DNA of 64,000 nt, taken from positions 8,409,057-8,473,056 of the forward strand of contig OZ014415.1 in NCBI GenBank assembly GCA_963965975.1, given 5' to 3'. Both the position numbers and the translations under genes were made by a program. The stretch is from Xestospongia bergquistia (taxonomy: Eukaryota; Porifera; Demospongiae; Haplosclerida; Petrosiidae). The notes under the pieces are model-generated. The model was not told the origin of the DNA. It ran no database searches and saw only the letters and a list, made by a program, of their open reading frames with translations. Position 1 is the stretch's first letter, and each line of letters opens with the position of its first letter. Below, piece by piece: positions 331 to 28,854 of this stretch.

Positions 331-939
331 ATGATGAAGACCTACTCTATATTTGTGGTACTTCTTAGTTTGAGTGGTTGTTGTACTGCTCAGCCTAGTG
401 GAAGTGGTGATTACTCAAGTGACAATATAGATGAGGAGGAAACTACTGTTTGCATCTGCTATGAATATTATTATAATGCTATGACATATAAGATAGCAAT
501 CGTGCATACTAGCTGGAAACTTTTATCATTCATTGCAGATAATACAGTTCTCTTGTTCTTTATTATGTTTGTATTATTGGTGTTGTTGCTGTTGTTGGTG
601 GTGGTGGTCCTGGTGATGATGATGATCCTACTATTGATGTTACTACTATTGATACTGTTTGTATTGGTGATGATGAAGATGTTGCTACTGATGTTGCTAC
701 TATTGGTGTTGTTGCTACCAGTGTTGTTGTTCTTGCTACTATTGCTTACTTACTATGAACAAAACAATATAGCATACAGCAATGGAGTACTGGCAGTAGA
801 TGAAGGAAAACTGGACACAGAACTGACTTTTTCATGTAACATCAGGTCTACTACAACATCTATTAATAATTATATCTACACCACTCCTGATGTACAGGCC
901 AAGGACAATAGATTTTATAATAGTCAACTGGTACTTTAA
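331..939 (+). CDS. small secreted-type single-pass membrane protein, copy A of a local family
   Basis: I do not recognise this protein. The ATG opens a clear signal peptide (MMKTYSIFVVLLSLSGCCTA), followed by a short Ser/Gly/Asp/Glu-rich stretch, a very long run of Leu/Val/Ile/Met, and a hydrophilic tail of about 60 residues carrying TELTFSCN. The frame is open throughout, but I favour one intron from 419 (CAA|GTGACA) to 538 (TTCATTGCAG). Copy C has an acceptor at the same place, and splicing keeps the frame. The spliced product would be about 160 residues with its tail in the cytoplasm. The hydrophobic run of over 60 residues is much longer than one membrane helix and is written in near-repetitive TTG/CTA/ATG codons, so it looks expanded. 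The tail resembles those at 14.2 kb and 15.4 kb. Only this copy of the three has a signal exon. Confidence 0.5.
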   Translation: MMKTYSIFVVLLSLSGCCTAQPSGSGDYSSDNIDEEETTVCICYEYYYNAMTYKIAIVHTSWKLLSFIADNTVLLFFIMFVLLVLLLLLVVVVLVMMMILLLMLLLLILFVLVMMKMLLLMLLLLVLLLPVLLFLLLLLTYYEQNNIAYSNGVLAVDEGKLDTELTFSCNIRSTTTSINNYIYTTPDVQAKDNRFYNSQLVL

Positions 940-1817
940 TATAATACTATAATATATTTACTATTGTTATTTTGTTTTGTATTGTTACTAATATAATTGT
1001 TGTTCTATCCCTCATATAAATATCAGCTGTTAAGATATGTTGTCCACCAATGTGGATTTGTCTTCTTTTTATATATTTGAAATTTAAAATTTAGCTCAAA
1101 ATTAAACTTATACTAACTAATTTAAGATGAATACATAATGTTGCTACTTGCTAGTCTCCTAAAAGACTCGACTTCCTCTATCTAAGTTCCTCCACAATCT
1201 TTCCATGTTATAATTAGACTCATTCCATGATCATACAACAATAATAGGTGCATGTTCTTCAACACATTGTTTCAACTAACAAACAGACAGTCCTTCTTCT
1301 TTAGTTTAGCAGGAAGTAAATACTACATTATAACTTGATTAGTATAAAAAAAGAAGTAAATAGCAAATGATTGAACAATGGTAGCAATTAGATGGATGGA
1401 TATTGATCAAAAATAGATGAATATATGATAAATTAATGGACAGATAGATTAAGGAACTGGATGTTATAATCTCAGGACATACAGTTATATTAAAAGCACT
1501 CTCAGTATTTATTATCACTCTCATATTGTCAATATTTGTACTTGTATAGGTACTTAAAGTTGTGTAATGGAGCTATTAATACACAGTTAAGTCTGACAGT
1601 TAAAAGATGCAATTAAATTACACAGACATTATTATCATTATCAGGACATATTATTTATAAAAAGTAATACAGTTACTTGCTTACATACAAACCATAAACA
1701 AATAGTACACCCACTCATGATGACTATCATGTTAAATTGCAATACCTATACCTCATGGTACATGTACTTGTAATAGTATATCATAATATATAACATGTCA
1801 TGAATATTTTATACATG

Positions 1818-1848
<31 letters not shown>

Positions 1849-2003
1849 TATATTTCTACTCACACAAACAGGACAGCACAACTCCTAAATATATATTTAT
1901 ACTGATATAAGTGTTACTTTTAAATCTATCTGTCATAGTTTATCAAGTTATTACATTATCATATCATTAGGTATCCGGGCTCTTCTCTCAGGAGTGTGAT
2001 CGT

Positions 2004-2411
2004 ATGAAGGACTTTATACATGTCCACTCATTTACATATGATTTTCATATCAGAATGGTGTTGAATATTATACGAGGGAGGACAAAATTTCATGGAAATC
2101 TAAACTGTGGGACTTGTTGGACCAGTTTTGGCAATGTTATCAACACCCTCCCAATTTTATTGCTATTGATGTTGTTGCTACTTCTAGTACCAGTGTTGAT
2201 ACTCTTGCTACTACTGCTTGCTTACTATGAACAAAACAACATAGCATACAGCAATGGAGTACTGGCAGTAGATGAAGGAAAAATGAACACAGAACTGACT
2301 TTTTCTTGTAACATCAGGTCTACTACAACATCTATTAATGACTATATCTACACCACTCCTGATGTACAGGCAAAGGACAATAGATTTTATAATAGTCAAC
2401 TGGTACTTTAA
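2004..2411 (+). pseudogene. copy B of the membrane/tail exon, no signal exon seen
   Basis: From about 2165 this frame repeats the membrane segment and tail of the gene at 331-939. The hydrophobic run is shorter (about 27 residues) and the tail from YYEQNNIAYS to the stop is nearly identical. The part before about 2150 has no counterpart in copy A and contains no signal peptide. A fragment of that upstream part (GGGACTTGTTGGACCAGTTT) recurs near 7026. It may be a decayed duplicate, or a 3' exon spliced to something I cannot identify. The intact tail argues for recent duplication or for continued use. Confidence 0.4.
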
Positions 2412-3424
2412 TATAATACTATAATATATTACTTTTGTTATTTTGTTTTGTATTGTTACTAATATAATTGTTGTTCTATCCCTCATATAAATATCAGCTG
2501 TTAATATATGTTGTCCACCAATGTGGATTTGTCTTCTTTTATATTTGAAATTTAATATTTAACTTCAAATTGAGTTAATACTAATTAATAGTTTAATACT
2601 AAGATAAATACATATGTTGCTAGTCTTATAAAAGACTCAATTTCCTCTAAGTCCCTCTGCAATCTTGCCATGCATATGATATAAGACTCATACAATGATC
2701 GTACAATGATAACAAGTGGATGTTCTTCAACACATTGTTTATACTAGCAATCAGATAGTTCCTCTTCTCTGGTTTAGCATGAAATAAAACTACTACATAA
2801 TAACCTGATCATGATCAGTAGAAAAGAAGTAAATAGCAATTTATTGAACAATGGTAGCAACTAGATGGATGAATATTGATGGACAGATAGATGAATGGAT
2901 GATGAATGAATGGACAGATAGATGAATGGACAAACTGATTAAATAAATGGATGTTATAATCTCATGTTTTAGTTTAAAATCCATCAAATGGTTTGGTTCA
3001 AACTGTACAATTTGCTAGTATTTTATATAATCACTACATATATATATAATAAATTCTTCCTATTAAAAAAATTGCATGTAATAAATTTTTTACCAACCAT
3101 TTGATGGGTTTATTCATACATGCATTATTACATAGTATAAAATTCATTGTATGACCACCTTATGTAAGCATTACATCAACACATTAACACATTGTTCAAG
3201 TCTGACAGTTAAAACATACAATTAAATTATCACTATCAGGACACATGCACCTCCAAATTACAAATTGTTTTGACAACTATGTAAACATTACATGGTTCAT
3301 GGTATGTGGCCATATCACTCAATGGACTTAGATGAAGGTAGGAATTGATGATCGAGCATTATTTGTAGGATTAACTATGAATATTTTGTGACAACATAAA
3401 CTCTGGAGTAGGAACAGGAGAGGA

Positions 3425-3545
3425 CAAGATTTCATGATCATACAATGATAACAAGTGTGTGTTCTTCAACACATTGTTTCACCTAACAAACAGACAGTCC
3501 CTCTTCTCTGGTTTAGCATGAAATAAAACTACATTATAATCTGAT
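3425..3545 (-). pseudogene. decayed copy of the ELMOD last exon
   Basis: Read on the minus strand, this segment gives AKPEKRDCLFVR, a stop, then NNVLKNTHLL. This follows the intact ELMOD last exon (AEPENIMAFSSIRDSFVRHL, then a segment ending RLKERPLI) with gaps. The open frame is broken and no splice signals remain. It has the same orientation, relative to the membrane/tail exon, as the real ELMOD 3' end has to the small membrane gene at 15.2 kb. Confidence 0.55.
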
Positions 3546-4800
3546 CAATAAAAAAGAAGTAAATAGCAATTGATTGAGCAATGATAGCAACAAGATGTTT
3601 TATAGTATACACAGATAGATGAATGGATGGACTGACTAAAGAAATGGATGTTATAATCTCATGTTTTACTTCAAAATCCATCAAATGGTTTGGTTCAAAC
3701 TGTATACTATTATACAGTTTACAGTATACAAACTGTATACTGTAAACAAACTGTATACAAACTGTATACTGCTGTATACTGTAAACTCTATTTCCTTCTT
3801 TAGTAGCTTGATTCCAAAAAATGTACATGGAATGAATTTTATAACAACTATTTATACACTTTAAACTAAACCATTTGAAATTTATTGACACCTTGTTAGT
3901 ATATGTTAGCATTATATGAATGTTGGCTAGATGTTCCATTTCCTTCCTATAATGGTAACTTGATCCTAGTAAATATTACATACAAGTCAATATAAGGTTT
4001 GTATATTAATGTGTATTGAAACATTAAACACATTAGTATTTATTATATAGTCAATATTTATACTTGTATTAGTGCTTAAGAGTGTCTGACAGTTAATACA
4101 CATAATTAAATTACACAGAGAATTATTATCATTATCAGAACAATCAATAAGAACAGATCATTAAACATTAGCTTTTTGAAAAAAGAATTGCTACTGCAAT
4201 AAACAAATTACTTCATTACATCAATATGTTACACTATAAAGAAAGCGTAAACTGTTAATATGATGTCCTTTTACATGTACTTGATCTGTTAGTACATGTA
4301 TTAACAGCATATGACAATTAGATGTACCAATACAAGTACAAATATTGATTGTATAATAAATACAAAGAGTGTTTATAATAACATTAATACACAAACCTTA
4401 TATTGACTTGAATGTTAAATTATTGGAATTAAGGCACCATTATAGGAAGAGGGAAGATCTAAGTTAAATGTACTAACTTCCTGTAGTATAACCATTATGT
4501 GTTATCATTATGTAATGTTTATATACAGTTATATAATGAAATTTTTATACTAACAATGTGTACAGTTTGAGCCAAACCATTTGATGGATTTTGAACTAAA
4601 ACATCCATTTCCTTAATTAGTCCATCCATCTCTCTATCCATCATTAACTATTCATCTATTTTCTATCAATATCCATCCATCTAGTTGCTACCATTGTTCA
4701 GTCATTTGCTATTTACTTCTTTTCTACAGATCAAGTTATAATGTAGTATTTACTTCCTGCTAAACTAAAGAAGAGAGACTATCATTTTGTTAATGTAAAC
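3480..4800. repeat. large imperfect inverted repeat
   Basis: The left arm (about 3480-3715) runs from the block with GTCCCTCTTCTCTGGTTTAG to TCCATCAAATGGTTTGGTTC. The right arm (about 4560-4800) carries the reverse complement in opposite order, from CAAACCATTTGATGGATTTT to CTGCTAAACTAAAGAAGAGA. The core between them is about 850 bp, AT-rich and without a credible gene. It contains overlapping short palindromes built on CAAACTGTATAC (about 3700-3790). The same arm sequence occurs once more in forward orientation at about 2730-3020, so the inverted block probably arose by inverted duplication of the local repeat unit. I saw no transposase or target-site duplication. Confidence 0.65.
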
Positions 4801-5166
4801 AATATCTTGAAGAACATCCACTTGTTATCATTGTATGATCATGGAATGAGTGTTATATCATATAAATTGTAATGTTCTACCCCATGGTAAGGAATAAGAA
4901 ACTCATAAATACTATTGCTATATAGGTATTCATTGAGTTACACCTCTTCTTGAATATAATTTATTATTTGTATACAGTGCTCACAGACTATGAATGCTGG
5001 ACTATGAATATGATTATATGAGATGACTAGAGTAGTTTGTGTCTTGCTAGACTATGAATATGATTATATGAGATGGCTAGAGTGTAGTTGTTTGAGTCAA
5101 TATTATCAGTCGTGGAAACTAGCTGGAAACTTTAATAAACGAGGTTATTTTTATATTTCATTGCAG

Positions 5167-5486
5167 ATAGTACAGTTCTCTTGTTCTTTATTATGTTTGT
5201 ACTATTGATGTTGTTGTTGTTGGTGGTGGTGGTGGTCCTAGTAGTGATGATGATCCTACTATTGATATTACTACTATTGGTGATGTTGCTACTCGTTTAT
5301 TATGAACAAAACAATATAGCATACAGCAATGGAGTACTGTCAGTAGATGAAGGAAAAATGAACACAGAACTGACTTTTTCATGTAACATCAGGTCTACTA
5401 CAACATCTATTAATAATTATATCTACAACACTCCTGATATACAGGCCAAGGACAATAGATTTTATAATAGTCAACTGATACTTTAA
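5167..5486 (+). pseudogene. copy C of the membrane/tail exon
   Basis: A good acceptor (TTTATATTTCATTGCAG) ends at 5166. The exon reads in the same phase as exon 2 of the gene at 331-939: a run of about 40 Leu/Val/Ile/Met residues, then the conserved tail with TELTFSCN and a stop at the same place. No matching signal-peptide exon is visible upstream. A partial tandem repeat (about 4990-5085) lies there instead. It is either an orphan 3' exon or a terminal exon of an unrecognised gene. The following 1 kb closely matches the DNA after copy A. Confidence 0.4.
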
Positions 5487-7249
5487 TATAATACTATAAT
5501 ATATTTACTATTGTTATTTTGTTTTGTATTGTTACTAATATAATTGTTGTTCTATCCCTCATATAAATATCAGCTGTTAATATATGTTGTCCACCAATGT
5601 GGATTTGTCTTCTTTTTATATTTGAAATTTAAAATTTAGCTCAAAATTAAACTAATACTAACTAATTTAAGATAAAATACATAATATTGCTAGTCTCCTA
5701 AAAGACTCGACTTCCTCTATCTAAGTTCCTCTGCAATCTTTCCATGTTATAATTAGACTCATTCCATGATCATACAACAATAATAGGTGGGTCTTCTTCA
5801 ACACATTGTTTCAACTAACAAACAGACAGTCCTTCTTCTTTAGTTTAGCAGGAAGTAAATACTACATTATAACTTGATTAGTATAAAAGAAGTAAATAGC
5901 AAATGATTGAACAATGATACCAACTAGATGGATGGATATTGATAGAAAATAGATGAATATATGATAAATTAATGGACAAATAGATTAAGGAACTGGATGT
6001 TATAATCTCAGGACATACAGTTATATTGAAAGTACTCTCAATATTTATTCTCACTCTTATATTGTCAATATTTGTACTTGTATTGGTGTTTAGGGGTGTA
6101 TACTGGAGCTATTAATACACAGTTAAGTCTGACAGTTTAAATATACAATTAAATTACACAGACATTATTATCATTATCAGGACATATTATTTATAAAAAG
6201 TAATACAGTTACTTCCTTATACTTCCTCAACAAATAGTAAACCCACTCATGATGACTATCATGGTAAAAATTGTATGTACTTTATGATAGTATTCATAGA
6301 AGAATTTATCATTACAATTACTCCTACTGTGTATGAGGTTTCCTTCAGCTTAAAGGGTTTCCTTCACCTTGTGTAGTCACAGGTTAGAAAGATATGATAG
6401 TGAATTATATTATTAAATGTATTCATTTATTACTTTACTATGACAATCATAGACTATGTATCCATGGTTACTATATCATTTATCCATTCATTTTACAATC
6501 TATCCATTTAGATCTCAGAAGAAGATGAGATATAGCAAAGTACAGTACATGAGAACTTCCTCAATATGTCATTTATAAATAATTTATTTCATGTCAAATT
6601 ATATTCCATTGAACACTCCAGATTACCTCCTCCTAGTTATGAGGTGGGCAGAGTTATATAATATTACATGTATGTTGTCTTTATTAGTTAAAGGAGTATA
6701 TTCATTATAAGTAATAGAACAATAAACATATTAAATATGTCCTTTAATAATGTTAGCACAAGTCCTCTGTTTTGTTGTAAACATTTATAGTCAAATTCCA
6801 ATACTTGTTTCAATACTTCTTTCACACTACATGTATATATACTGATATATATATATCAGTATGTATGTATATATGTATGTATATTACATACATAGATATA
6901 TATATATATATACATACACACACACACACCTATATATATATATTTCTATTCACACAAACAGGACAGCACAACTCCTAAATATATATTTAACTGATATAAT
7001 TGTTACTTTTAAATCTAAACCTTTAGGGACTTGTTGGACCAGTTTTGGTAACATTATCAACACCCACCTAATTTTATAATTGTTATCATCCTATGATCAT
7101 GGAATGAGTCTTATATCATATAAGTTGTAATACTATACTCTATGGTGCATGTACTTATATAATATTTCATAGTTTAACTTGCTGCTATGAATATTATTGA
7201 AGAATAGACTAGGCTCTCTCAAACTCTATTAAAACATCTTGTTTCCTCT

Positions 7250-7395
7250 GAGTCACTCAGTCTTGTATTAAAACTCAATCACTGATTCCATGACCAATAA
7301 CAAGTGAGTATTTTTCAACACATTATTTTAACTAATGAATAGAATAGTCCATCTTCTTTGGTTCAGCATCAAATCAAATTACATAGAACTCGATC
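7250..7395 (-). pseudogene. decayed copy of the ELMOD last exon, more divergent
   Basis: On the minus strand this reads DAEPKKMDYSIH and then a stop, matching the ELMOD last-exon start DAEPENIMAFSSIR. At DNA level TTGGTTCAGCATCAAATCAA is very close to CTGGTTCAGCATCAAACCAA in the intact exon near 15830. Further fragments with the same order of landmarks lie at about 1182-1340, 2640-2815 and 5715-5880, and inverted at about 4725-4860. Confidence 0.5.
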
Positions 7396-8662
7396 AGTGA
7401 TAAAAGACATTGTTTTAAAATTGTAAATTATTGAGCAATAGCAACTAAGAGGATGGATTAATGGAAGAATAGATAAATGAGTTAATGGACAGATATATGG
7501 ATATATAGATGAAAGAATTGAAAGAAGGATCAGATAAATGGATGGATGAAAGAATGGATGGATGGATGGATGGATGGATGGATGGACTGATGTCAGGCAA
7601 AGAAAATGATTAATGCTCAGTTAAACTTAGTTATTTTAAATGGTTCAAAATATCAAATTGTTTTGGCAATATTCCTATTTATTGTATGTAAACATTACAT
7701 AAATAGGAGTGTAGGATATAGCACATTCCAAGTGAACAACTATAACAATATCAGAAGATCAATAGCCATCAGTTGTTATGTGTGTCTCGTTATGAAAACC
7801 TATCCCATTAATGATGAAAGTTACATCATCACTATATACCAAATATTATATTATATTTGGTATTTAGTGACAATATAAGTCACATGATCAAATCATGATT
7901 TGGTAGTTATAGGATACTCAATTATAAATGTAAGTATTGATGTCAAATTGGATAATATATAAGAAATGTTTAATCTGTAAGATTACTTCTATAAATGGAT
8001 AACACATGATAAGTAAATGGACAAATATATAGATGGATGAATATAGTATTAACAACTACAAATAGTGAAATAAGAACAGTGGGATTTGTAAGAGGGGCAA
8101 ATTGTCCCCCAATAATTGAGGGTCTCGTATAACACCAACCTGCATAATTAGTTATCAATTAGATCTAAATAGAATCTGATTATCTCCCAATCTTATACAT
8201 CATACTCCATTGAAACATAACTGTAATTTAAACAATTTATTAAATATTTAACATTAATATCATTATACTCCCAAAATGTTAGCAATATCCCTCTCTAGTA
8301 AAAAACATATTATAGTTAGATCATCGGTAGATCACAGATGATGGCCTTAACTGCTCATTTAATATGATTTAAATGACTTAATATACACAAATGCACATCA
8401 CCTTCATCACAAACTTTGACACCTGAACAGTTGTCACATAATATAGAAAATGGACTAGAAATAGACCAACTTCTACACCAGCATCTTCAAAATGTTAGAG
8501 AACGGACACTCCAACAGACTAGATTCATTGAATTGATGGGCAGATGGATGAATGGATGATGAATGAATGGACAGATAGATGGAAGGAGAAAAAAATAAAA
8601 AAGAATTAATAAAGAATAGATAAATGGATTGATTATCAAACAAACAATTGATATTTTAGTTC

Positions 8663-8723
8663 ATAATCTATCAATACATATAGTTTGTTCAAATTGTACA
8701 AACTATATGTATTGATAGATTAT
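8663..8723. repeat. perfect 26-bp hairpin with 9-nt loop
   Basis: The left arm at 8663-8688 and right arm at 8698-8723 are exact reverse complements, separated by TCAAATTGT. The arms resemble the ends of the repeat that reads ATCCATCAAATGGTTTGGTT elsewhere in the left region, so this may be a collapsed remnant of that inverted repeat. Confidence 0.85.
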
Positions 8724-9385
8724 GTTAATAACATGACTCACCAAATTTGTCTCACTCCAAGAATAATTGTAGTTTTGTTTTACAGCAAAGAATGAATATC
8801 TTGAGAATACAACTCTTACCTCTAGAGCGTGTATGCATATGTTGGACTAAGGTACATTTTCAAAACACACATACAAACAAAATATTAACTTTATAATACT
8901 ATACTATACTAAGAATTTTTCAATACACATTAATAACAGAGTATAGTCTAAATATACTCTATAGAATAAATGAAGCTTGCTATGTTATAGGAGTTTATTA
9001 GTTGTTACTGTTATTAAGTTATATTCAAAATCATTTATTTTCAGTAATTGGATCTTTTAAATAGATCTGGTTACTGACTTGGAAGCCCTATTATCAAAAC
9101 TATTTAAATTCTGCTATGAATGGTTCTATAAACAGTTTGATGTATAGTTGTTTTTGTGGTTGTAATTAGAGGAAGAGGCATGTGCATATGTAGCTACTAC
9201 TACTCTATTTTAAGACAACTTTCACGTAACACCTAATAGTCATTCATTGATCAAGTTGAGCGTAAATCAAAATTTGCGTTGAACTATATTAAATATGAAT
9301 ATTTTAATAATATTCATTACTATATATGTGATGATAGTAACTTCAACTGTTGCTTGTCAGTATTGACCACTAGGCGGTTGCAAAG

Positions 9386-12033
9386 ATGAAGAGAGCGCCT
9401 GTCAAGAAAGACCGGTTACCACGATTTCTAGTAAGTCAATGAGTGTTGTTTGTTATGTCATAGATACTTACCTTCCTCGTAGGTAAGCACCTATGGTTTT
9501 GTTAACAATTCTTACCACTAAAATGTTATAAATAGTCCTGATGAGATACCACTAGTCTTACAATTATATTGCCTGCTAGTTAACTGACAATAGCTAGAAT
9601 TGTTGTGCATTTTGAAACAATTGTGGAAGAACCTTAAAAAGCTGGAATTGCCTTATAATTAAATATGCACGTGAACTCTGACCTTTTTCTTTGCACTAAT
9701 CTTACTTCAAAGTACAATGCATGATAGGAATATGCTGTAGGAGAGTAATGAGACACAAATGATCTCCTAGGGAGAATAAGGAGATATAAATGATGTCCCA
9801 ATGATCAGCCAAAAGGTTATTTTGTTAGTAGTTACAAAGACACTAAGCTAAGTCCAATACCTGAGATGGTTCAACATATTAAATCTATCATGCATTCTAC
9901 TTTGCACTTTTTTATAAGGAGCTGATGAAGAAGCCCTTTAGGCCAAAATGTTGTTTTATAATAAAACTTTTTACCATCTTTAAAACAAAAATACCTCTTA
10001 ATCTCCATAATATTAAGGTAGTGTAGAATGCAGGTTATAGATGGGAAGTTAATACTATATATTCCAGACCCTAAACCTTAAACATCAGAACCTAAATGTA
10101 ACAATATCACGTTAAAGTATGATGTTCAACTACCAGCACTCTAGACATTGCCTAATAAATATTAAATTCCCATCAAAGTACAGCATTTTATTATCATGCC
10201 TTAATTTTAGCTCTCTCTGTCTCTATCTCTCTCTCTTTCTCTCTCTCTCTCTTTCTCTAGATCACAGTTATTTTACTACATTGTAATAATAATGTATTTG
10301 CTATCAGATCAACTTTCACTTCTACATTCTATGAAGTGTCAGTTAAAGAGGATGCACAAGTAGGTTACTACTTTGATCTCTTACAAATTGTTAATATGAG
10401 CAGTTATAATTCAAACATTAAGTGCAACTTTATATTTCATAGCAAGTTTGTTTGCTAACTAGTAATTATCACTTGTTTCCTCTATCTCACTTCCTTGTCT
10501 CCCGCAGATTGGCCACGTACTACTCCATTCCTTAGAGGCTGATACTAGTAATGTTACAACAAAATATAGTCTTGTTGGAGAACAGAGCCAAGACTTCTCT
10601 ATCACACCTTATGGATCTCTACAAGTAGCTAGACCTTTAGATCACGAACAAAAAGATCATTATGAATTAACTATAGCTGGAATTAGTGTTACATACCCTT
10701 ATGAAACTGCATATTCACTGGTTGCTATAGATATTGAGGATGTCCCGGATAATTACCCGGTATTTGAGAAGGCAATGTACACAGTGTGGGTTAAAGAAAA
10801 TCAAACGATCAAAGAAACTTTTTTTTCAGTAACAGCCACTACAAAAGACTCTTTTCCTTTGAAATATGAAATTATTGGTGGTAACAAAGAAGGACTTTTT
10901 ATTATTAACACCACAACAGGGGATCTAAGTCTAGCTAAATATTTGTACTACCAAAGCAAGAATAGCTATCGACTTGTCGTACAAGCTAGCTATGTTGCAG
11001 ACAATTCTTTGTATCAAGATGTTGTTATTTCTATAGCTGTGACTAATACTGGTACACCTGTTGTATTCAGTGAGGAACAGTATAGTTTTAATGTGTCAAG
11101 TTCTGTTGTGATGTCTGATGACATATTTGGTTATGTTTTTGGTAGACCTTGTAATGCCTCGGTTATCAGCTCTGGTATAATGTACTCCATTGATAATGTA
11201 AGTGAATGAATGTATGTATGTATGTATGTATGTATGGATTAATTGATGGATAGATGGAGATATGAACGGATGTGTGTATCGAATTATTTACGTTTGGTGG
11301 AAACTTAGATGACTTCTTTTAAAATAATTATTTAATTTAGTAAATTCTTAGTTTGGTAGTTTAGTTGAATGTTTGGCTACTTACATAACAACAATACATG
11401 CATATATGTAAATAATATTGTTGTATGTTTGCCAAAAAGTTTTGACTCTAGTGTAAGTTGGTTAATATTCTTTGTATGGTCTCTGACAACATTAGAGTAC
11501 ATTATAGTCATCTTCTTTCTTGATAGACTTACAATGTAGTTTATATAATTATATGAGGTTAGTATTTAGTATTGTGTTTTGGTCAAATGTGAAATGTCTC
11601 TTTTTTCTGTTTGATGTAAGAGGTAATAAGTGGTATTGAGTTATCGACAAGTGGTTACTTGGAAAAGTAACAAGTTTAACAAAGACAAGTTTCATTTTGT
11701 AATCATACCATTTTTGTTATCATAATAATTGTTACATCTCTCTCTCTGTCTCTCTCTCTCTAGAATAATATTACAATTGATCCCTCTACTGGTGCTCTCT
11801 TTTTTAGTCACTCCCTTCCTATTGGAACAACCACATATGCTAAAGTAACAGCTGTCTCCAGTACAGATGAAGACACTACCCAATTGACAATAAATGTAGT
11901 GACAACTCCCTCATTTAATCTTTCGAAAACTCAGTACAAAGTCGATGTCAATGATGACATTACCCCAGGTACTCATGTTGTTACCATTAATGGAGAGGAT
12001 GGTGACAACTTTAAGATTATAGCAGGAAATTGT
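9386..12033 (+). CDS. cadherin gene copy 1: duplicate of exons 1-4 of the receptor at 29-43 kb
   Basis: Four exons in phase 0: 9386-9430 (MKRAPVKKDRLPRFL), 10261-10359 (hydrophobic signal core ITVILLHCNNNVFA, then the first cadherin strand), 10508-11197 and 11764-12033. Together they encode a signal sequence and about three and a half cadherin-type repeats (the linker IEDVPDNYPVFEKA is visible). Exons 2-4 and their introns are almost identical to 29698-31467. Similarity to that gene stops in intron 4 at about 12560, where copy 2 begins, and exons 5 onward are missing. No stop or membrane segment follows exon 4 directly. Because all introns are phase 0, exon 4 could splice into exon 2 or 3 of copy 2 and give a complete membrane cadherin. 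Otherwise it is a 3'-truncated pseudogene. All four exons are open. Confidence 0.7.
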
Positions 12034-12639: not shown

Positions 12640-14287
12640 ATGAAGAGAGCACCTGTCAAGAAAGACCGGTTACCACGATTGCTAGTAAGTCAATGAGTGT
12701 TGTTTGTTATATCAGATACTTATCTTCCTCGTAGGTAAGCATCAATGGTTATATTAACAATTCTTACCACTAAAGTGCTATAAATAGTCCTGATGAGATA
12801 CCACTAGTCTTACAATTATATCGCCTGCTAGTTAACTGAGCTAAAATTATTGTGCATTTTGAAACAACTGTGGAAGAAGCTTAAAAAGCTGCTAGAATTA
12901 TAATTATGCCTTATAATTAAATATGCACGTAAACTCTGACCTTTTCTTTGCACTGAGCCTTATAATTAAATTGCATGTGAACTCTGACCTTTTCTTTGCA
13001 CCAATCATATTTTATATACACAAAGTACATTGCATGATAGGAATGTGCTGTAGGAGAGTAAGGAGACACATATGATCTCCTAGGGAGAATAAGGAGATAT
13101 AAATGATGTCCCAATGATCAGTCAAAAGGTTATTTTATTAATAGTTACAAAGACACTAAGCTAAGTCTAATATCTGAGATGGTTCTACACATCAAATCTA
13201 TCATGCATTGTACTTCACTCTTTTTTATAAGCAGCTGATGAAGAAGCCCTTTAGATCTAGACCATAATGTTGTTTTATAATAAATTTTTTTACCATCTTT
13301 AAAACAAAAAATACCTCTTAGTGTCCATAATATTAAGGTAGTATAGAGTGCTGGTTATAGATGGGAAATTAATACTATATTCCAGACCCTAAACCTTAAA
13401 CATTGAAACCTAAATGTAATGATTTCACATTAAAGAATGTTGGTTCAATTACCAGCATTTAAGACACTCCTTAATATTAAACTCCCATCAAAGCACAGCC
13501 TTTTATTACCATGCCTTAATTTTAGCTCTCTTTCTCTAGATCACAACCATCTTCCTACTTTATAATAATAATGTATTTGCTATCAGACCAACTTTCACTT
13601 CTACATTCTATGAAGTGTCAGTTAAAGAGGATGCACAAGTAGGTTACTACTTTGATCTCTTACAAATTGTTAATACGAGCAGTTATAACTCAAACATTAA
13701 GTGCAACTTTATATTTCATAGCAAGTTTGTTTGCTAACTAGTAATTATCACTTGTTTCCTCTGTCTCACTTCCTTGTCTCCCGCAGATTTGTCACATACT
13801 ACTCCATTCCTTAGAGGCTAATACTAGTAATGTTATAACAAAGTATAGTCTTGTTGGAGAGCGAAGCCAAGACTTCTCTATCACACCTTATGGATCTCTA
13901 CAAGTAGCTAGACCTTTAGATCACGAACAAAAAGATCATTATGAATTAACTATAGCTGGAATTAGTGTTACATATCCTTATGAAATGGCATATTCACTGG
14001 TTGCTATAGATATTGAGGATGTCCCGGATAATTACCCGGTATTTGAGAAAGCAGTGTGGGTTAAAGAGTGTCAAACAATCAAAGAAACTTTTTTTTCAGT
14101 TATTTTTTTCTCTTCACTAGTTCTAGCAATAATCATTGTTATGCTTCGTATTTTACGAATACAAGGTAATGATCCACTGGTCAATCATGGACGCGATAAT
14201 CTTGAGCTAGAAGCAAGAGGTAATATAAAGCAAACTGACCTGGTTTATTCTTGCAACAGATTTACTACAACATTTAAGATCAATTAA
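12640..14287 (+). CDS. truncated cadherin fused to a membrane segment and short tail (copy 2)
   Basis: Exons 12640-12684, 13540-13638 and 13787-14287 give 214 residues: signal sequence, one cadherin repeat, the start of a second (VWVKECQTIKETFFSV), then at once a membrane helix (SSLVLAIIIVMLRILRI) and a 45-residue tail with TDLVYSCNRFTTT. The cadherin part matches copies 1 and 3. The switch comes right after TTTTTTTTCAG, where the other copies continue into repeat 2. The new part resembles the small membrane protein at 15.2 kb and the tails at 0.9-5.5 kb. Exon 1 and intron 1 closely match copy 1. AATAAA at 14465-14470 may be its polyadenylation signal. It could stand alone as a single-repeat membrane cadherin or serve as the 3' end of a transcript starting in copy 1. 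Confidence 0.65.
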
Positions 14288-15207
14288 CTATATTTACATC
14301 ACTATACAGATCTGTATGAGGTTTTAAACCTTAAAACTTGTTGAGCCCATTTTGTTTATATACTTTTGTTATTAATTAATTTGTTCTTTCATTTATTGTT
14401 ATATAATCTTTAATCTTTATTTTATTCATTTATTGAAATTAATGAAGAATAGTCTTAAATATGTAATAAATATGTATAATATAAAAATATGTAATAGATA
14501 TAAGAGTATGGATGATGGATGGATGAATGGATAGTCAATCAGACACATACATTATACTATCATAAAGTCAGTAATTGTAACAATTCTCCTTTGTGTAGTT
14601 GTTAAGGAAATTAATAATAATGTTACAATGTTTATAATGTTACATTTTAGTTGAAGTAGTTCAAACAATACAAATTGTTAGTATGATAACAAATCCATTA
14701 CATGACTATATATAAATATTTACTACTATGTGATAATGATACACATTATATAAACTACATAGTATTAATTGTTGTGTTAACTATTTAGAGTATAATTTTT
14801 AGAATTTAGAATTATATCATTAAAAATTGAGAGTGACATTTTCTGCTGGTACCAATGGCTATCAAAATGACAGCTGGAGACTTAAACTGACTTAAAAGTT
14901 GCTCGTGTATAAATTGATGGGTGGACAGATAGATGGACAGACTAACATGTATAAATATTATAATTATATTCCATTAAATTTTAGTTATTTAATTATTAAT
15001 TACAAAATTTAATAATTATTATTATTCAAAATTAATAAGTTGTGGGAAATATTAATATTATTATACGTTTATATATTATACTTCCTGTTCCGTTTCCACT
15101 TTTATTATTACTCTATTAAGAGTCGAGTAGGTTGAAAACACGTGTCATTTCGGCATTCCTTGCTAAGTAGCTGCAACTTCTAGCCGTCGAATATTTAATT
15201 TCCAGTA
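14288..15207. other. intergenic stretch with an ELMOD exon relic
   Basis: AT-rich DNA without a gene. It contains a possible AATAAA at 14465, a GGAT-rich patch (about 14512-14535) and, at about 14555-14606, a segment close to the ELMOD exon at 16081-16120. Several runs of TTAAT/ATTAA occur near 14980-15060. Confidence 0.6.
14555..14606 (-). pseudogene. relic of an internal ELMOD exon
   Basis: TCATAAAGTCAGTAATTGTA and the following bases line up without gaps with the ELMOD exon at 16081-16120 (CCATAAAGTCAGTTACCGTG onward). Roughly three quarters of the bases match over about 41. It lies downstream of the fused membrane/tail exon of cadherin copy 2, just as intact ELMOD lies downstream of the small membrane gene at 15.2 kb. 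Confidence 0.55.
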
Positions 15208-15579
15208 ATGGAAGCTTTGTTTCAAGAATCGAGTTTGTATCGTAAGTTCAACAAAAGAATTAGCTGTTAAGTTACCCTTTCCTTCTCAACAGCTTTAAAC
15301 GACGCGTATCTTGTTCTTTCGTTGGCATTTCTATTAATTATTCTGTTGATTATTCGTCTCCTGCTCATTATCGCCCAACGAGACGATGACCATGGAGCTG
15401 ATGGTGATTTAGAACTAGAGATAAACGATGGCACAAGAGCCACAGAGCTGGCTTATTGTTGCAACAGATTTTTTAAATATCCAAGAACAAAGCTGTCTTC
15501 CCCATGGCATACTAAAATTGACGGTATTTCATATTTCCATATTAGGCGTGTGGCAAAAAGGACAAAATGTTCGAACTGA
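15208..15579 (+). CDS. small single-pass membrane protein with family tail
   Basis: Two exons, 15208-15241 and 15293-15579, separated by a 51-bp intron (GTAAGTTC to TTCTCAACAG), give 106 residues. A short N-terminus without signal peptide is followed by a strong helix (VLSLAFLLIILLIIRLLLII) and a charged tail with LELEINDGTRATELAYCCNR. That tail matches LELEARGNIKQTDLVYSCNR of the fused cadherin at 14.2 kb and the TELTFSCN tails at 0.9, 2.3 and 5.4 kb. The C-terminal 40 residues are basic and unique to this copy. ATTAAA at about 15646 may serve as polyadenylation signal. It faces ELMOD tail to tail with 138 bp between stops. I do not recognise the protein. It may be the ancestral form of the tail family. 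Confidence 0.55.
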
Positions 15580-15717
15580 ATATTTAGAAAAATTGCTAGG
15601 TTGACGTTCTATTTACTTTTTTTTATTATAATTTTGTTAAATTGTATTAAAGTCATTCATTTAATTCCTAATTATTGAACTTGAACTCCAGTCCAAACTT
15701 GATTGCAGACATTTCTC

Positions 15718-16417
15718 TCAATCTTGTACAAGACTCATTCTAATAATCAGTGGGCGTTCCTTAAGACGTTGCCTTAAATGTCGAACAAAACTGTCCCTTA
15801 TACTTGAGAAAGCCATTATGTTCTCTGGTTCAGCATCAAACCAAAATTTATTGAAACTGTACAAGATATAACCTATAATGTTAAAAGAAGAACAGTTTGA
15901 AATGTAACTATATAGAGGAATGGATGGATAGATGCATAGCTGATGAGATGTATAGATGTTAAATTGTAACATTAAATGTTTAATTCTATTATTTTTGGTC
16001 AAGCTATATATCAATTGATTTAGTTACATTGGCTATCTAAACTGTCATAATTGTGTGTTTTTGCTGACATATTATCTTACAATGTGCTTCCATAAAGTCA
16101 GTTACCGTGACAACTCTCCCCTCAGTAGTCACATAGAAGTAATACTCCAATGTATTATCCATTACCATATTATAAAGTATACTAGTTATATTAATACTTG
16201 TAATAGCTAATGGATACCTACATGTAGAGAACAGATTATATAATATTGTTATATTAAAAGTTTTACTAACCCTTTTGTTGGATGTTGGGAATGTCCATGT
16301 ACTTGACGTGCTTTTCCATTGTGGATTTCAGCAAAGTAACTATATTTAAAGAGAAGTTAATAAAGTTATATCTGGCAATAGGATATGCATTTACTAATTT
16401 TCATTTAAAACAGCAAT

Positions 16418-16483
<66 letters not shown>

Positions 16484-17895
16484 TCCAGGAATTTGGTATT
16501 AAACCAACTGAATATTTCCTAAACCACAGTGGGAGGTAACAAGCTGCCACCCAAGTACACAAGGCATTTCTGTGGACAGCAAGATTTTTGTAAGCTGTAT
16601 ATATCAGTCCTATATATACTTGTCCACAGCCCCTTCCCCTCTAAGCAAAGGCATTTCTGTGGCCAGTAAGATTTTTGATGTCTGTACAAATCCTATACAC
16701 ACTTGTCACCAGGCCCTTCCTCTCTAAGCAAAGGGGAGTCAGTAACAGTGCTAAATAAATTTTCAAGATAGACAAATCTAACTACTTCTTTTATGATGAT
16801 TATATTATAATCTTTGTTGTTTGATTTATGCAAACTCAACAATTATTTTACTTACACAAGACATTGTAGTCCTAGTATACCCATTCCACGAAAATCAGTT
16901 GCTGGATCTTTTCCTTGAAAACCAATAGTACCCCAATGATTACCAAAACGATGTTTTAATTCTGTATCAGGAAGTAAGAGAGACCACAACTATAAAAGAG
17001 AGAAAAATAAAACATTTGTCCACCATCATTCATCTATCCATTGATCCATCTGTCCATTCATTCATCCATCCATCTGTCCATCTACCTTAGTCAGTAATTG
17101 TTCATGTTCAGTGTTTTCCAGTGAGTATTGTTCTTTTCTCATTTGTTCTACATCTCCTTTTAACACAGTGTATCCAATAATTGGTAAGAGACAAGGATTT
17201 AAACGCGCTACAAAACTGGAAAAATTTTAAAACATTAACAATAAACATGTTTAGCATGTGTTACTTGGAAATCGAGAGGTCAAAGGTTAAATTATCACTC
17301 ACTTTGGATCTTTTTCAGGTGGTATCTTTTTAATTCTCAAAATAATCTGTAAGGCATTATCAGGTTCTACATTCTCTGACTGACTACTGTCAACAATTCT
17401 TTTAAGATCCTATAAAGAGAGAATGGAGGCCATTACTATATACACAAAAAACATCATTATATAAACAACAAAGAGCATTCTATTATATCTCCAGATATAT
17501 GAATAGTACAATAATATTGTTCAATTCTAACAATGATAGAATACAATGTCTGAATACATACTACAATATCAAAGAGAAAATGAACAATGACATCGATTAT
17601 AGTAACCCAACCCTTTAATTAAAATTAATGAATTACTTCATTAAAAAACTGTTACATACTACAATATAGTTTACCTCATATTTAGAAGTTCTCAATGATC
17701 TAGCTACATGAAGTAATAATTTATTAAGTTAATTGATTTTATTTTCAATGGATTATATAACTTACCAATACTCACAGTCCTAATAGGAACATCCTCTGTC
17801 TTTTGACAAATTCTCTGTAACTCACATTTACCAGTTAACAGTCGTAATATCCATTTACAGATCCGCCAGAAAACGAGAGAAAAGTAACCAGACAT
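15718..17895 (-). CDS. ELMOD2: ELMO domain-containing protein (Arf/Arl GTPase-activating protein), ELMOD1/2 type
   Basis: Nine exons join in frame to 281 residues: 17766-17895, 17675-17703, 17303-17409, 17086-17215, 16856-16989, 16271-16339, 16166-16217, 16081-16120 and 15718-15872. The N-terminus has a hydrophobic segment and LLTGKCELQRIC, typical of ELMOD1/2. The ELMO domain carries HWGTIGFQGKDPATDFRGMG, including the Arg regarded as the GAP catalytic residue, then SQHPTKGYPLAITSIN and FNKFWFDAEPENIM. Known members act as GAPs for Arl2 and Arf GTPases on internal membranes. The start at 17895 is chosen because the preceding in-frame residues are not family-like. The stop of PUM3 lies only 75 bp upstream on the same strand. 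Intron 4 contains an ATCC-type simple repeat. ELMOD1 versus ELMOD2 cannot be decided by eye. Confidence 0.93.
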
Positions 17896-17970
17896 TTTGA
17901 TAGGGCTCACCCTCCTGACTCCACCCACTTTTGATAAAATTTGAATTTTATTAAATTTTGCTAACAACAA

Positions 17971-20900
17971 TTAATTTAAAGATTCCTCTATAGTTTTCAA
18001 TAAAACTTTAGCTCCTTCACTCTTTGTAGACATAGTTCTCAGTTCCTCTACAACAGGTCTTAATATCTCTAATATAACTTCCTTGGACTTGTGACAACTA
18101 ACAACCATACTAGATAATAACAAAATATTCATACTCATAATGTAATACATTCATTATCTCAGACCCAAACTCCCAATCTTAAATCTCAAAAACACACAGC
18201 TTATTTTTAACCCCAAATGTAGCATCTAAACCTACACACATCTATTGTCATGTGATAATAGAGTGTAGTTGAAAGGTTTTAAACAGAACAAGGGCTATAA
18301 ATATGACCATTATATAAATGTGTATGGAACATTACTTACTAGGTCCAAACCAAATGACCACACTATAAAGACTCAAGTAGACCTGTTATATACCACTACA
18401 TGATATTGAAAGTATATGTACAATATATGTACATGTACAATACATGTATATTGAATAACAATGACACCTGTTGTTTACAAATGTCACAATAGCAACTACA
18501 CCTAGCAAACTCATTTAATGAAGACTAAAACCACAAGGTGGAAAAAAAGACTGTGTTGTTTTGATAGCCAAATACAAGGGTCTAACCCCCCCCCCCCCCC
18601 CAGTTGGTAACCACTATTGAACTGGACCAGATCTCTCTATGAAAAGGGCCAGTTTTGGGGACTAGTTTGGGTGTACAGTCATTAGTAATACCTTCAGTAA
18701 TACTAATGACTGTATTATATAATACAAAAAATATATCGAATTACATTATATTATATTATTAACAGCTGCAGCTGTTAAATATTATATAATAAATTATAGT
18801 GTTAAGTACATACATACCTTGACAATACAAAACATCCTCTATTAGTACTAGACCAACTCTGAATAGCAGCATCAGATATGGTCTGTGTTATAATGTCACC
18901 CAATAAAGGTGTGTCTATGAGAGAAGCAATAGAAAATAATACAATAGATAAAAAGGAACACATGATGTGATGTACATATGTATATCTACATGGACATATC
19001 CCATAAATGGAGAGGACACTAGATAAATAATACCTTCTCTTGTTGTTCCTATAAGTTTTTTTAGTACCCAGTGACCACAAGGGTCAGCTGCTAAATGACC
19101 CTCTTCCTTATAAGGTAATTTCAGGTTTTCACAAAGAGATGAGTAGATCGGAGTAACATCCCCTTTTGCTGACTGGACAGTTTGGATAAGTAATGGAGCC
19201 AGAGGTTTAGTATATGCCCATTTGATGGCTTTTTCAGCAGCCAAGTTAATGAGGGGTGGAGATATTGCTGTTAGTAACTCCTCCCATCTAATGGTCTGAG
19301 GTTTCTTACTGTAGCAAATAAAGAGTTAAAATATATAAACACTGGATTGACACAGAGCAGCTGCATTATCAAATATGTTGAGTTAGCAGTTAACAATGTC
19401 AACTTCCTAAGCATAAATTACTTGAAAGACTTGACCTTTATTTAAACATAAAGGGAGTTATCAAAGGACAAAAAGAATAAACAGTTAATATCTAGTTTAT
19501 TTATTGAAAATGAAAACTATGAGACGATGAAACTGTTAGCAAAAAATATCAATAGAAATTAATTGTCAGTCATAATATTAACTTAATGTCAACTTCTGTC
19601 AAAATTTACTTCAATAGACACAAGTTTATTTATAATATACAGGATGTTTAGCAAAGGGAGATATAAACTCAATGCGTATTTATTGAAAATTAAAGCTATA
19701 AAAAGCCATCATTAAAAATCAGAGGGTATTATACCATCATGACATATATATACATAACATTACCTGTGTTGATTGTTATCTCCTGGAGTTAATAGTTGTA
19801 AGAATTGTTGGGAGAAATGTTGAGGAGATCTTGGACTCAATAAATACAACAGAACTCGACGGCCATGTTTATCTTCACAAAGCTCTTCAAGTGATGACAT
19901 CATAGGCTAAAAATAGAACACAATATCCCAATCATGTCACAGCAGTTCTCAAAAGTATCCAAAAATATCCAATAATATATCTCAATAGTATCCCAATAAT
20001 ATCCAAACTTACCACTAGTATATTCTTTGTAACTAACACAGTATCATCCACACAGTCAAACACACCTAACAACACTAAGTGACCATGTTCTTCCTACAAT
20101 AAGGAGAGCATTATAATGAACACAATATTATGTCATACTTTACATATCTTGGTGACATAATTCTTTAAAGATTTGATATATATTTTACGATCCTATAATG
20201 AAGTAAATTTCTTCCATTAATCTTCAGTAAAAATATATCTGTCTTTACTTTTGCTGTTCCATGCCATAGACAATGAAGATTGATTTTAGCACCTTCACGT
20301 GTATGTAACATCTCCACGGCAACCTCTCTTAGACTCTCTATCATTTCCTGGAAGTAAAGAGATGAGTGAAGAATTGTGTGTACAATGTCATAAATTGAAA
20401 ATAGATATCAAAATACTGGACAAGACAAACAATAAAAAGAAAACAGTTTTGATCATTTGTGGTATAGTTTGTCATGGGGGTATTCCCAGAATATCATTCC
20501 TAATTGTTATTTATAATGGAATTATTACTCCCGTCCACACACTCATTTCTCTGTAGATATTAAAATATCAACTCACAGCTTTAGAGATATCATCAGCATG
20601 AAGAACAAACTCCAGTAAAGCATAATGTACAATACTATGTCTCAATAGATTCCTATACAATATATAATAATATAAATGATGATACACAATATATTACATC
20701 ATACTTGTCTAATAATGGCATTAATGCTTGTTTCATGTGACCAATCAATTTAGTTCTCTGTTCTGGATTGGCGGACAAAATGTCACCTAAACTTTGACCA
20801 CTCCCATCTTTAAACAATGCAAATTGAGGTCCGTAAAACTCTTGTACCAGCAAAGATCTCTGTTGTACATTAGCATAATCATTATATGCTAATTCTACAA

Positions 20901-22718: not shown

Positions 22719-28854
<6,136 letters not shown>

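What the first reader, a model, noticed from the sequence alone, without database searches (positions are those of the whole stretch)
1182..7395. Fossils of the ELMOD last exon scattered through the left array
Segments at about 1182-1340, 2640-2815, 3425-3545, 5715-5880 and 7250-7395, and inverted at 4725-4860, resemble the minus-strand last exon of ELMOD at 15718-15872. Translated fragments such as AKPEKRDCLFVR and DAEPKKMDYSIH track the intact DAEPENIMAFSSIRDSFVRH. Each direct copy lies downstream of a membrane/tail exon, as intact ELMOD lies downstream of the 15.2 kb gene. This suggests that a module (membrane gene plus the 3' end of its neighbour) was duplicated repeatedly and that the locus at 15.2-15.9 kb is close to the source.
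Basis: partly seen in the sequence, partly recalled or inferred. Interest (0 to 1): 0.75.

Follow-up and report, generated by a model that had tools for sequence, protein, structure and literature searches.

The report
Dead ELMOD exon copies in array
In what looks like a sponge genome, a cluster of small membrane-protein genes carries decayed copies of the last exon of its neighbour gene, ELMOD; they are real relics, but they come from one already damaged ancestor and are ordinary duplication debris, useful mainly as markers of how the cluster grew.

Summary
All six named segments are relatives of the ELMOD last exon (15718-15872), in the stated orientations. A profile made from fossils alone, with its simple repeat cut off, scores the two intact ELMOD exons at 22.6 and 27.8 bits; the best of 4000 dinucleotide shuffles is 8.4. 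The exon is a conserved ELMOD C-terminus, so ELMOD is the ancestor, not the repeat.

The history needs correcting. All 35 aligned fossils that span the sites, from this cluster, C7 and dispersed blocks, lack the same 21 bases and carry 13-14 extra ones relative to ELMOD, and stand across a 100/100 branch from three ELMOD copies. They come from one truncated, already broken founder, not from repeated copying of the 15.2-15.9 kb locus. That locus is one of two intact ELMODs 20 kb apart, flanking the window's left array; a third, dead copy lies on contig C7. Three of the five direct copies in the window follow a tail exon, not all five. Tail and fossil have partly different histories: the tail is homogenised across modules, the fossil is not.

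Verdict: real, but ordinary duplication debris.

The parts
15718..15872 (-). Intact last exon (exon 8) of ELMOD copy B, the reference for the fossils
   Evidence: Splice signals and open frame; 8 exons give 296 aa; ELMO_CED12 domain E 5e-47 at residues 111-270; F252, P261, M265, F267 invariant in 10 aligned proteins
15718..17895 (-). Whole coding region of ELMOD copy B, 8 exons
   Evidence: A vs B pS 0.089, pN 0.021
1148..1467 (+). Fossil 1 (ELMOD sense on minus strand), downstream of a tail exon
   Evidence: nhmmer; 1 of 2000 shuffles reach its single score
2617..2956 (+). Fossil 2, downstream of a tail exon
   Evidence: 2 of 2000 shuffles
3429..3654 (+). Fossil 3, starts at profile position 71, no tail exon upstream; near-identical truncated twin at C5:8383468
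   Evidence: 1 of 2000 shuffles
4598..4860 (-). Fossil 4, inverted, starts at profile position 58
   Evidence: 6 of 2000 shuffles
5687..6003 (+). Fossil 5, downstream of a tail exon
   Evidence: 0 of 2000 shuffles
7058..7118 (-). Truncated inverted fossil, left arm of an inverted pair with 7225-7501
7225..7501 (+). Fossil 6, of the second ('b') fossil clade; the best single match to ELMOD among the six; no tail exon upstream
   Evidence: 0 of 2000 shuffles
741..1140 (+). Tail exon and 3' spacer of module 1
   Evidence: reading frame
2215..2589 (+). Tail exon and 3' spacer of module 2
   Evidence: reading frame
5297..5685 (+). Tail exon and 3' spacer of module 3
   Evidence: reading frame
14548..14704 (+). 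Probable relic of ELMOD exon 7 (16081-16217) downstream of the cadherin-like tail exon that ends at 14287
   Evidence: Local score 64, 0 of 1000 shuffles as high; place chosen after a weak tblastn hit (E 0.11); the near-identical stretch at copy A, not independent, scores 55, 2 of 1000
15400..15579 (+). Part of the last coding exon of the short tail gene, convergent with ELMOD; about 140 bases lie between the two stop codons
   Evidence: Translation; sequence

Best explanation
The segments are non-processed pseudogene fragments of the ELMOD 3' end. A small membrane ('tail') gene and ELMOD converge tail to tail with about 140 bases between their stop codons, so a duplication of the tail gene whose breakpoint fell inside ELMOD carried ELMOD's last exon along. 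One such copy, without the rest of ELMOD, lost 21 bases (7 codons, in frame) and came to differ by 13-14 extra bases near its end. That broken copy was then amplified with its tail gene by tandem duplication over C5:8.359-8.416 Mb. An inverted pair of two fossil types formed within the family and is also found at C7:5.63 Mb and in larger repeated blocks on C4, C6, C7, C8 and C9. Later exchange between modules kept the tail exons and their spacers alike, while the fossils beside them kept their old differences. Shown: homology, shared indels, one-branch split, tail-fossil linkage, homogenised tail. Inferred: the breakpoint in intron 7, the order of events, unequal exchange or conversion as the agent. 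No function is proposed for the fossils; they look neutral.
For: Homology above chance. Exon 8 is ancestral ELMOD sequence, conserved from Amphimedon to Dictyostelium. The 21 bases are missing in 35 of 35 aligned fossils that span the site (33 lack 21, two lack 24 and 29), and 13 or 14 extra bases are present in 35 of 35 (the 36th aligned piece spans neither). ELMOD A, B and the C7 pseudogene on one side of a 100/100 branch, 35 fossils on the other. A fossil with the exon part at once downstream of 12 of 15 long tail exons, stubs or flanks at the other 3. Stops in all three ELMOD-sense frames of each of the six segments. Tail coding part 0.063 and 0.062 within the two fossil clades and 0.066 between; fossil exon 0.089 and 0.113 within and 0.208 between; the fossil labels do not sort the tail region (96 of 462 label sets as high).
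Against: 10 of the 24 fossil pieces in the C5 cluster lie without a tail exon, so the tail gene is not the only vehicle. Tail and fossil distances agree weakly (r 0.31), which also fits later insertion of tail units beside fossils. Single fossils match ELMOD at only about 60-65% identity where blastn aligns them, so the exact ends of homology, and thus the breakpoint, are uncertain; with the simple repeat cut the match stops inside the exon. No outgroup DNA roots the tree, and only the 21-base loss, not the 13-14 base difference, is polarised by other ELMODs.
Confidence: 0.8

Rival explanations
1. One reading: the intact membrane gene plus ELMOD 3' end at 15.2-15.9 kb was copied again and again, so each fossil is an independent copy of, or close to, that locus.
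For: Tail plus fossil recur as a unit; ELMOD lies at the edge of the array in the same convergent layout.
Against: Indels shared by 35 of 35 fossils; 100/100 split from three ELMOD copies; a second equally intact ELMOD on the other side of the window's array; the C7 pseudogene, a true copy of the locus, looks different: recognisable exons 3 to 8 and the 21 bases kept.
Confidence: 0.08
2. The fossil is a transposable element or interspersed repeat in its own right, spread by transposition, with an ELMOD piece captured inside.
For: Copies on C4, C6, C7, C8 and C9 in blocks alike over kilobases, mostly 85-97% in the long alignments; one block holds a DDE_1/HTH_psq transposase frame and one a satellite.
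Against: The dispersed blocks share far more than the fossil, so the block and not the fossil seems to be the moving unit; in the C5 cluster linkage to a tail gene is common, not free insertion. One search scored 40 of 161 candidates, so the copy number is a lower bound and no argument. Two other long frames of the blocks had no Pfam match. Target-site duplications and empty sites were not looked for.
Confidence: 0.12
3. The resemblance is chance between AT-rich sequences.
For: Single pairwise scores are modest, blastn shows only one copy clearly, and tblastn with the exon peptide finds none of the six at E up to 10.
Against: Shuffle and real-DNA controls.
Confidence: 0.01
4. The fossil is kept for a use, for example as part of the tail gene's 3' untranslated region or as antisense to ELMOD.
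For: It sits at a fixed short distance behind most long tail exons of the cluster; inverted pairs could fold into hairpins in a transcript (not tested).
Against: It diverges faster than the tail and spacer beside it (0.160 against 0.065 and 0.067) and is a stub or gone in 3 of 14 C5 modules; its low identity to ELMOD would pair poorly; none of the 13 tail exons at C5:3.3-3.9 Mb is among the fossil matches of the genome search.
Confidence: 0.04

Closest known systems
Unprocessed (duplicated) pseudogene fragments of a gene next to a tandemly expanding cluster (general knowledge, recalled)
   Same: Truncated copy of a neighbour gene, stops and indels, repeated with the cluster unit
   Different: Here the fossil keeps two old lineages while the gene beside it is homogenised, and part of the family was inverted and occurs on other contigs
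ELMOD1/2-type ELMO domain proteins (Pfam PF04727)
   Same: The intact gene at 15718-17895 is a member; best named relative is Amphimedon queenslandica, 62% identity
   Different: Two intact copies and one pseudogene in this genome; the fossils hold only the end of the gene
Concerted evolution by gene conversion or unequal exchange in tandem gene families (recalled)
   Same: Tail exon and 3' spacer are as alike between the two fossil clades as within them
   Different: The homogenised tract stops near 1161, close to where the ELMOD relic begins
Gene fragments carried by mobile or pericentromeric duplicated blocks (Pack-MULE or Helitron-like capture; recalled)
   Same: ELMOD fragment inside blocks repeated on several contigs
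   Different: No element ends, target-site duplications or intact autonomous partner were shown here

Membership tests
ELMOD (ELMO/CED-12 domain) gene, for 15718-17895 | ELMO_CED12 domain over the curated cut-off | tested here: met
   160.7 bits against cut-off 23.3
ELMOD (ELMO/CED-12 domain) gene, for 15718-17895 | Conserved C-terminus in the last exon | tested here: met
   F252, P261, M265, F267 invariant in 10 proteins
ELMOD (ELMO/CED-12 domain) gene, for 15718-17895 | Protein activity towards Arf-family GTPases (recalled) | not testable with these tools
   none
Unprocessed pseudogene fragment, for the six fossils | Sequence homology to the parent beyond chance | tested here: met
Unprocessed pseudogene fragment, for the six fossils | Intron sequence retained (not a retrocopy) | tested here: inconclusive
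   Profile match runs to 15956, past the exon end at 15872 into intron 7, but much of that stretch is a simple repeat; with the repeat cut the match ends at 15847
Unprocessed pseudogene fragment, for the six fossils | Reading frame broken | tested here: met
   Stops in all three ELMOD-sense frames of each of the six segments
Transposable element, for the fossil itself | Terminal repeats and target-site duplications at the unit's own ends | not tested
   No dedicated search of ends or empty sites was made; none caught the eye

The most novel reading that the evidence does not exclude
The step near 1161 is a conversion-tract edge: the cluster homogenises its membrane-protein tails across modules while the adjoining ELMOD relic is left out, and the relic's inverted-pair form has become part of mid-chromosome blocks on five contigs. 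If so, these relics are a built-in clock and barcode for a fast-turning-over sponge membrane-protein cluster and for its exchange with pericentromeric DNA.
Probability: 0.25. Interest if true: 0.45.

Novelty: new member of a known kind. Interest (0 to 1): 0.28.

Why it matters
It shows that the array's growth can be read from relics of a conserved neighbour gene: the shared indels trace the aligned copies to one founder, and the contrast between homogenised tails and diverged relics helps to separate gene conversion from duplication. For this genome it also warns annotators that ELMOD-like fragments are not genes. Beyond that it is ordinary duplication debris.

Tried and rejected
Rejected: chance similarity. 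Rejected: ELMOD's last exon being derived from the repeat; the exon is conserved in other animals and in slime moulds. Not found: an exon-7 relic in the 1-8.8 kb array; on the same strand the 13 tiles over 1000-8799 are reached by 19 to 197 of 200 shuffles each; of six control tiles elsewhere one (24000-24599) was reached by only 5 of 200 and the others by 42 or more. Rejected: an exon-7-like tblastn hit at L034 7135-7058 (E 5.6e-4); at DNA level it scores like plain shuffles (538 of 1000 as high). Led nowhere: tblastn with ELMOD exon 8 on single fossils. Not resolved: which ELMOD copy is nearest the root of the fossils (no outgroup DNA), the ends of the dispersed blocks, the identity of the tail gene (no Pfam match for 331-936). 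No solved structure matched ELMOD by sequence; no structure prediction was run because it would not bear on the question. Paper searches: listings and abstract starts only, no paper opened; no listed title concerned ELMOD relics or this cluster, and one search returned 0 papers holding 'ELMO domain', 'pseudogene' and 'tandem' together. Left out of the tree: one aligned piece (L015 6002-6166) and the short truncated pieces, such as 7058-7118.

Corrected on re-reading the calls: 7225-7501 was, in part, a seed of the first profile; the tail-fossil linkage is 12 of 15 with the exon part, not 15 of 15; the indel counts were recounted by script.
Full report
SETTING. The window is G000:C5:8409057-8473056 of a 146-Mb, 21-contig genome. 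Its ELMOD protein is closest to Amphimedon queenslandica, 62% identity, so a sponge is likely; the species is not known. To see the array whole, 59 kb to the left of the window and related stretches on other contigs were fetched.

THE REFERENCE GENE. ELMOD at 15718-17895(-) has eight exons with GT/AG signals and encodes 296 residues with an ELMO_CED12 domain (E 5e-47, residues 111-270). Exon 8, 15718-15872, is part of the conserved protein: four positions in it are invariant over ten aligned ELMODs, from sponge to Dictyostelium, and none of the nine relatives has a gap where the fossils have their 21-base loss. This fixes the direction: exon to fossil.

CHECK OF THE OBSERVATION. Sixteen C5 copies of the left-array segment, among them the six reported ones, were aligned and made into a profile without any ELMOD sequence. 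It finds a seventh, truncated piece at 7058-7118(-), the intact exon 8 (E 1.4e-9) and the exon 8 of a second ELMOD copy (E 4.4e-7). After cutting off the GGATGG repeat, which could mislead, the two intact exons score 22.6 and 27.8 bits; 4000 dinucleotide shuffles give at most 8.4 and window 20000-64000 at most 3.3. Singly, the six segments are reached by 1, 2, 1, 0, 0 and 6 of 2000 shuffles. Weaker tools fail: blastn shows one copy clearly, and tblastn with the exon peptide none of the six at E up to 10.

HOW MANY, AND WHERE. With the cut profile at E 1e-4 the stretch C5:8350001-8473056 holds 24 fossil pieces besides the two ELMODs, 7 of them in the window (two hits at C5:8375114 and 8375158 counted as one piece). 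A genome search with 1148-1480 gave 46 matches: 20 places plus 11 short repeat hits on C5, 6 on C7, 5 on C9 and one each on C2, C4, C6 and C8 (the tool calls such counts lower bounds). The tail exon and spacer 741-1140 has 31 matches: 14 long ones in this cluster, one on C7 at 5.634 Mb, 2 short pieces in this cluster, 13 at 68-70% at C5:3.32-3.91 Mb and one on C14. Behind the 15 long ones of the cluster and C7, a fossil with the exon part follows at once in 12; in 2 (C5:8365663 and 8386950) only the first 80 or so profile positions are left, about 30 of them exon; in 1 (C5:8375114) only the flanks of the exon part are left. The 2 short tail pieces have none, and 10 of the 24 fossil pieces have no tail. 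None of the 13 tails at C5:3.3-3.9 Mb is among the matches; one of the 13 was read, and its 398 downstream bases hold no fossil (best E 0.76).

ONE BROKEN FOUNDER. Thirty-six fossil pieces were aligned with ELMOD A and B (printed in part; recounted by script). All 35 that span the site lack the 21 bases that code seven residues in ELMOD (33 lack just these, two lack 24 and 29), and all 35 carry 13 or 14 extra bases farther on; the 36th piece spans neither. Some dispersed copies also hold a separate insertion beside the loss. The tree of 35 fossils and three ELMOD copies puts the ELMODs on one side of a 100/100 branch. Within the fossils two clades stand out, one of 26 ('a', 96/93, with the array modules) and one of 9 ('b', 100/96, with 7225-7501). 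The tree has no outgroup, so it cannot say which ELMOD is nearest.

TWO INTACT ELMODS AND A DEAD ONE. A second full ELMOD lies at L014 4973-6839 (C5:8404973-8406839); copies A and B are 96% alike over 16820-19055 and 82% over 15531-16423. Between them pS is 0.089 and pN 0.021, so both look constrained. The window's left array lies between them. A third copy, at C7:5409501-5412000, keeps recognisable exons 3 to 8 with stops, next to a decayed copy of the short tail gene, and retains the 21 bases. It is an independent duplication.

MECHANISM. In the intact locus the short tail gene's stop is at 15577-15579 and ELMOD's at 15718-15720, head-on. A duplication of the tail gene with its right end in ELMOD intron 7 takes exon 8 along. 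The profile match runs into intron 7, but the far part is mostly simple repeat, so the breakpoint is inferred. Behind the cadherin-like tail that ends at 14287 (cadherin domain) there is a probable exon-7 relic, 14548-14704 (0 of 1000 shuffles; place chosen after a weak tblastn hit; the near-identical stretch at copy A, 2 of 1000, is no independent support): perhaps another ELMOD piece behind another tail gene.

TAIL AND FOSSIL DO NOT SHARE ONE HISTORY. Over the 11 C5 modules with a full fossil, the tail coding part differs by 0.063 and 0.062 within the two fossil clades and 0.066 between; the spacer by 0.048, 0.071 and 0.072; the fossil exon by 0.089, 0.113 and 0.208. The step is near 1161. 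The clades were taken from the fossil tree, so the fossil contrast (1 of 462 label sets) is built in; the absence of that contrast in the tail (96 of 462) is the independent result. Tail and fossil distances correlate weakly but above chance (r 0.31, 108 of 9999 permutations as high). Conversion or exchange among tails is the simplest reading; late insertion of tail units beside fossils is not excluded. The tail reading frame is open in 12 of 14 cluster copies by a motif search, the other 2 not looked at further, and 11 equal-length tails give pN 0.065 and pS 0.076, close to neutral.

INVERTED AND DISPERSED COPIES. The inverted segment 4598-4860 and the pair 7058-7118(-)/7225-7501(+) belong to an inverted-pair form, with just over 100 bases between the arms, whose full version is at C5:8399201-8399905 and in blocks on C4, C6, C7, C8 and C9 (one search scored 40 of 161 candidates, so the list is partial). 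In the tree the C7:5.632 Mb copy branches first beside the dispersed ones in both arms, on forks of middling support, so the dispersed blocks may have come by way of C7. Ten such blocks were read; they are alike over kilobases beyond the fossils, mostly 85-97% in the long alignments. One holds a DDE_1/HTH_psq frame (two other frames tested had no Pfam match), and L018 holds tandem repeats of 68-85 and 190 base period. Several lie near the middle of their contigs (positions, lengths); that they are pericentromeric is a guess.

VERDICT. Observation confirmed, interpretation partly supported, and the thing itself ordinary: non-processed pseudogene fragments in an expanding cluster. What lifts it slightly is the clean single-founder signature and the contrast between homogenised tails and diverged relics.

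Noticed in passing
L014 4973-6839 (C5:8404973-8406839): A second intact ELMOD, so the window's left array lies between two ELMOD copies that form a segmental duplication.
   Followed up: yes
L035 (C7:5409501-5412000): A third ELMOD with recognisable exons 3-8, dead, beside a decayed copy of the short tail gene.
   Followed up: partly
window 14548-14704: Probable relic of ELMOD exon 7 behind the cadherin-like tail exon at 14.3 kb.
   Followed up: partly
window 331-939: 202-residue frame with a long hydrophobic tract built from GTTGTTGCT-type repeats, as if a membrane helix had grown by microsatellite expansion; the tract looks different from module to module.
   Followed up: no
L016-L025 (C4, C6, C7, C8, C9, several near mid-contig): Large blocks alike over kilobases that hold fossil copies, often as an inverted pair; a DDE_1/HTH_psq frame at L022:523-2439 and tandem repeats of 68-85 and 190 base period at L018:7695-8982.
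   Followed up: partly
C5:3324770-3913230: Another 13 copies of the tail exon at 68-70% identity to the window's, with no match in the ELMOD-fossil search.
   Followed up: partly
L029 6947-7978 (C7:5626947-5627978): Stretch 76% identical to window 18767-20000, the region upstream of ELMOD, close to the C7 fossil cluster; suggests an old copy of the whole neighbourhood.
   Followed up: no
window 10247-10830 and 13526-14100: Two cadherin-like gene copies 94% identical; a similar copy lies beside ELMOD A in L014.
   Followed up: no
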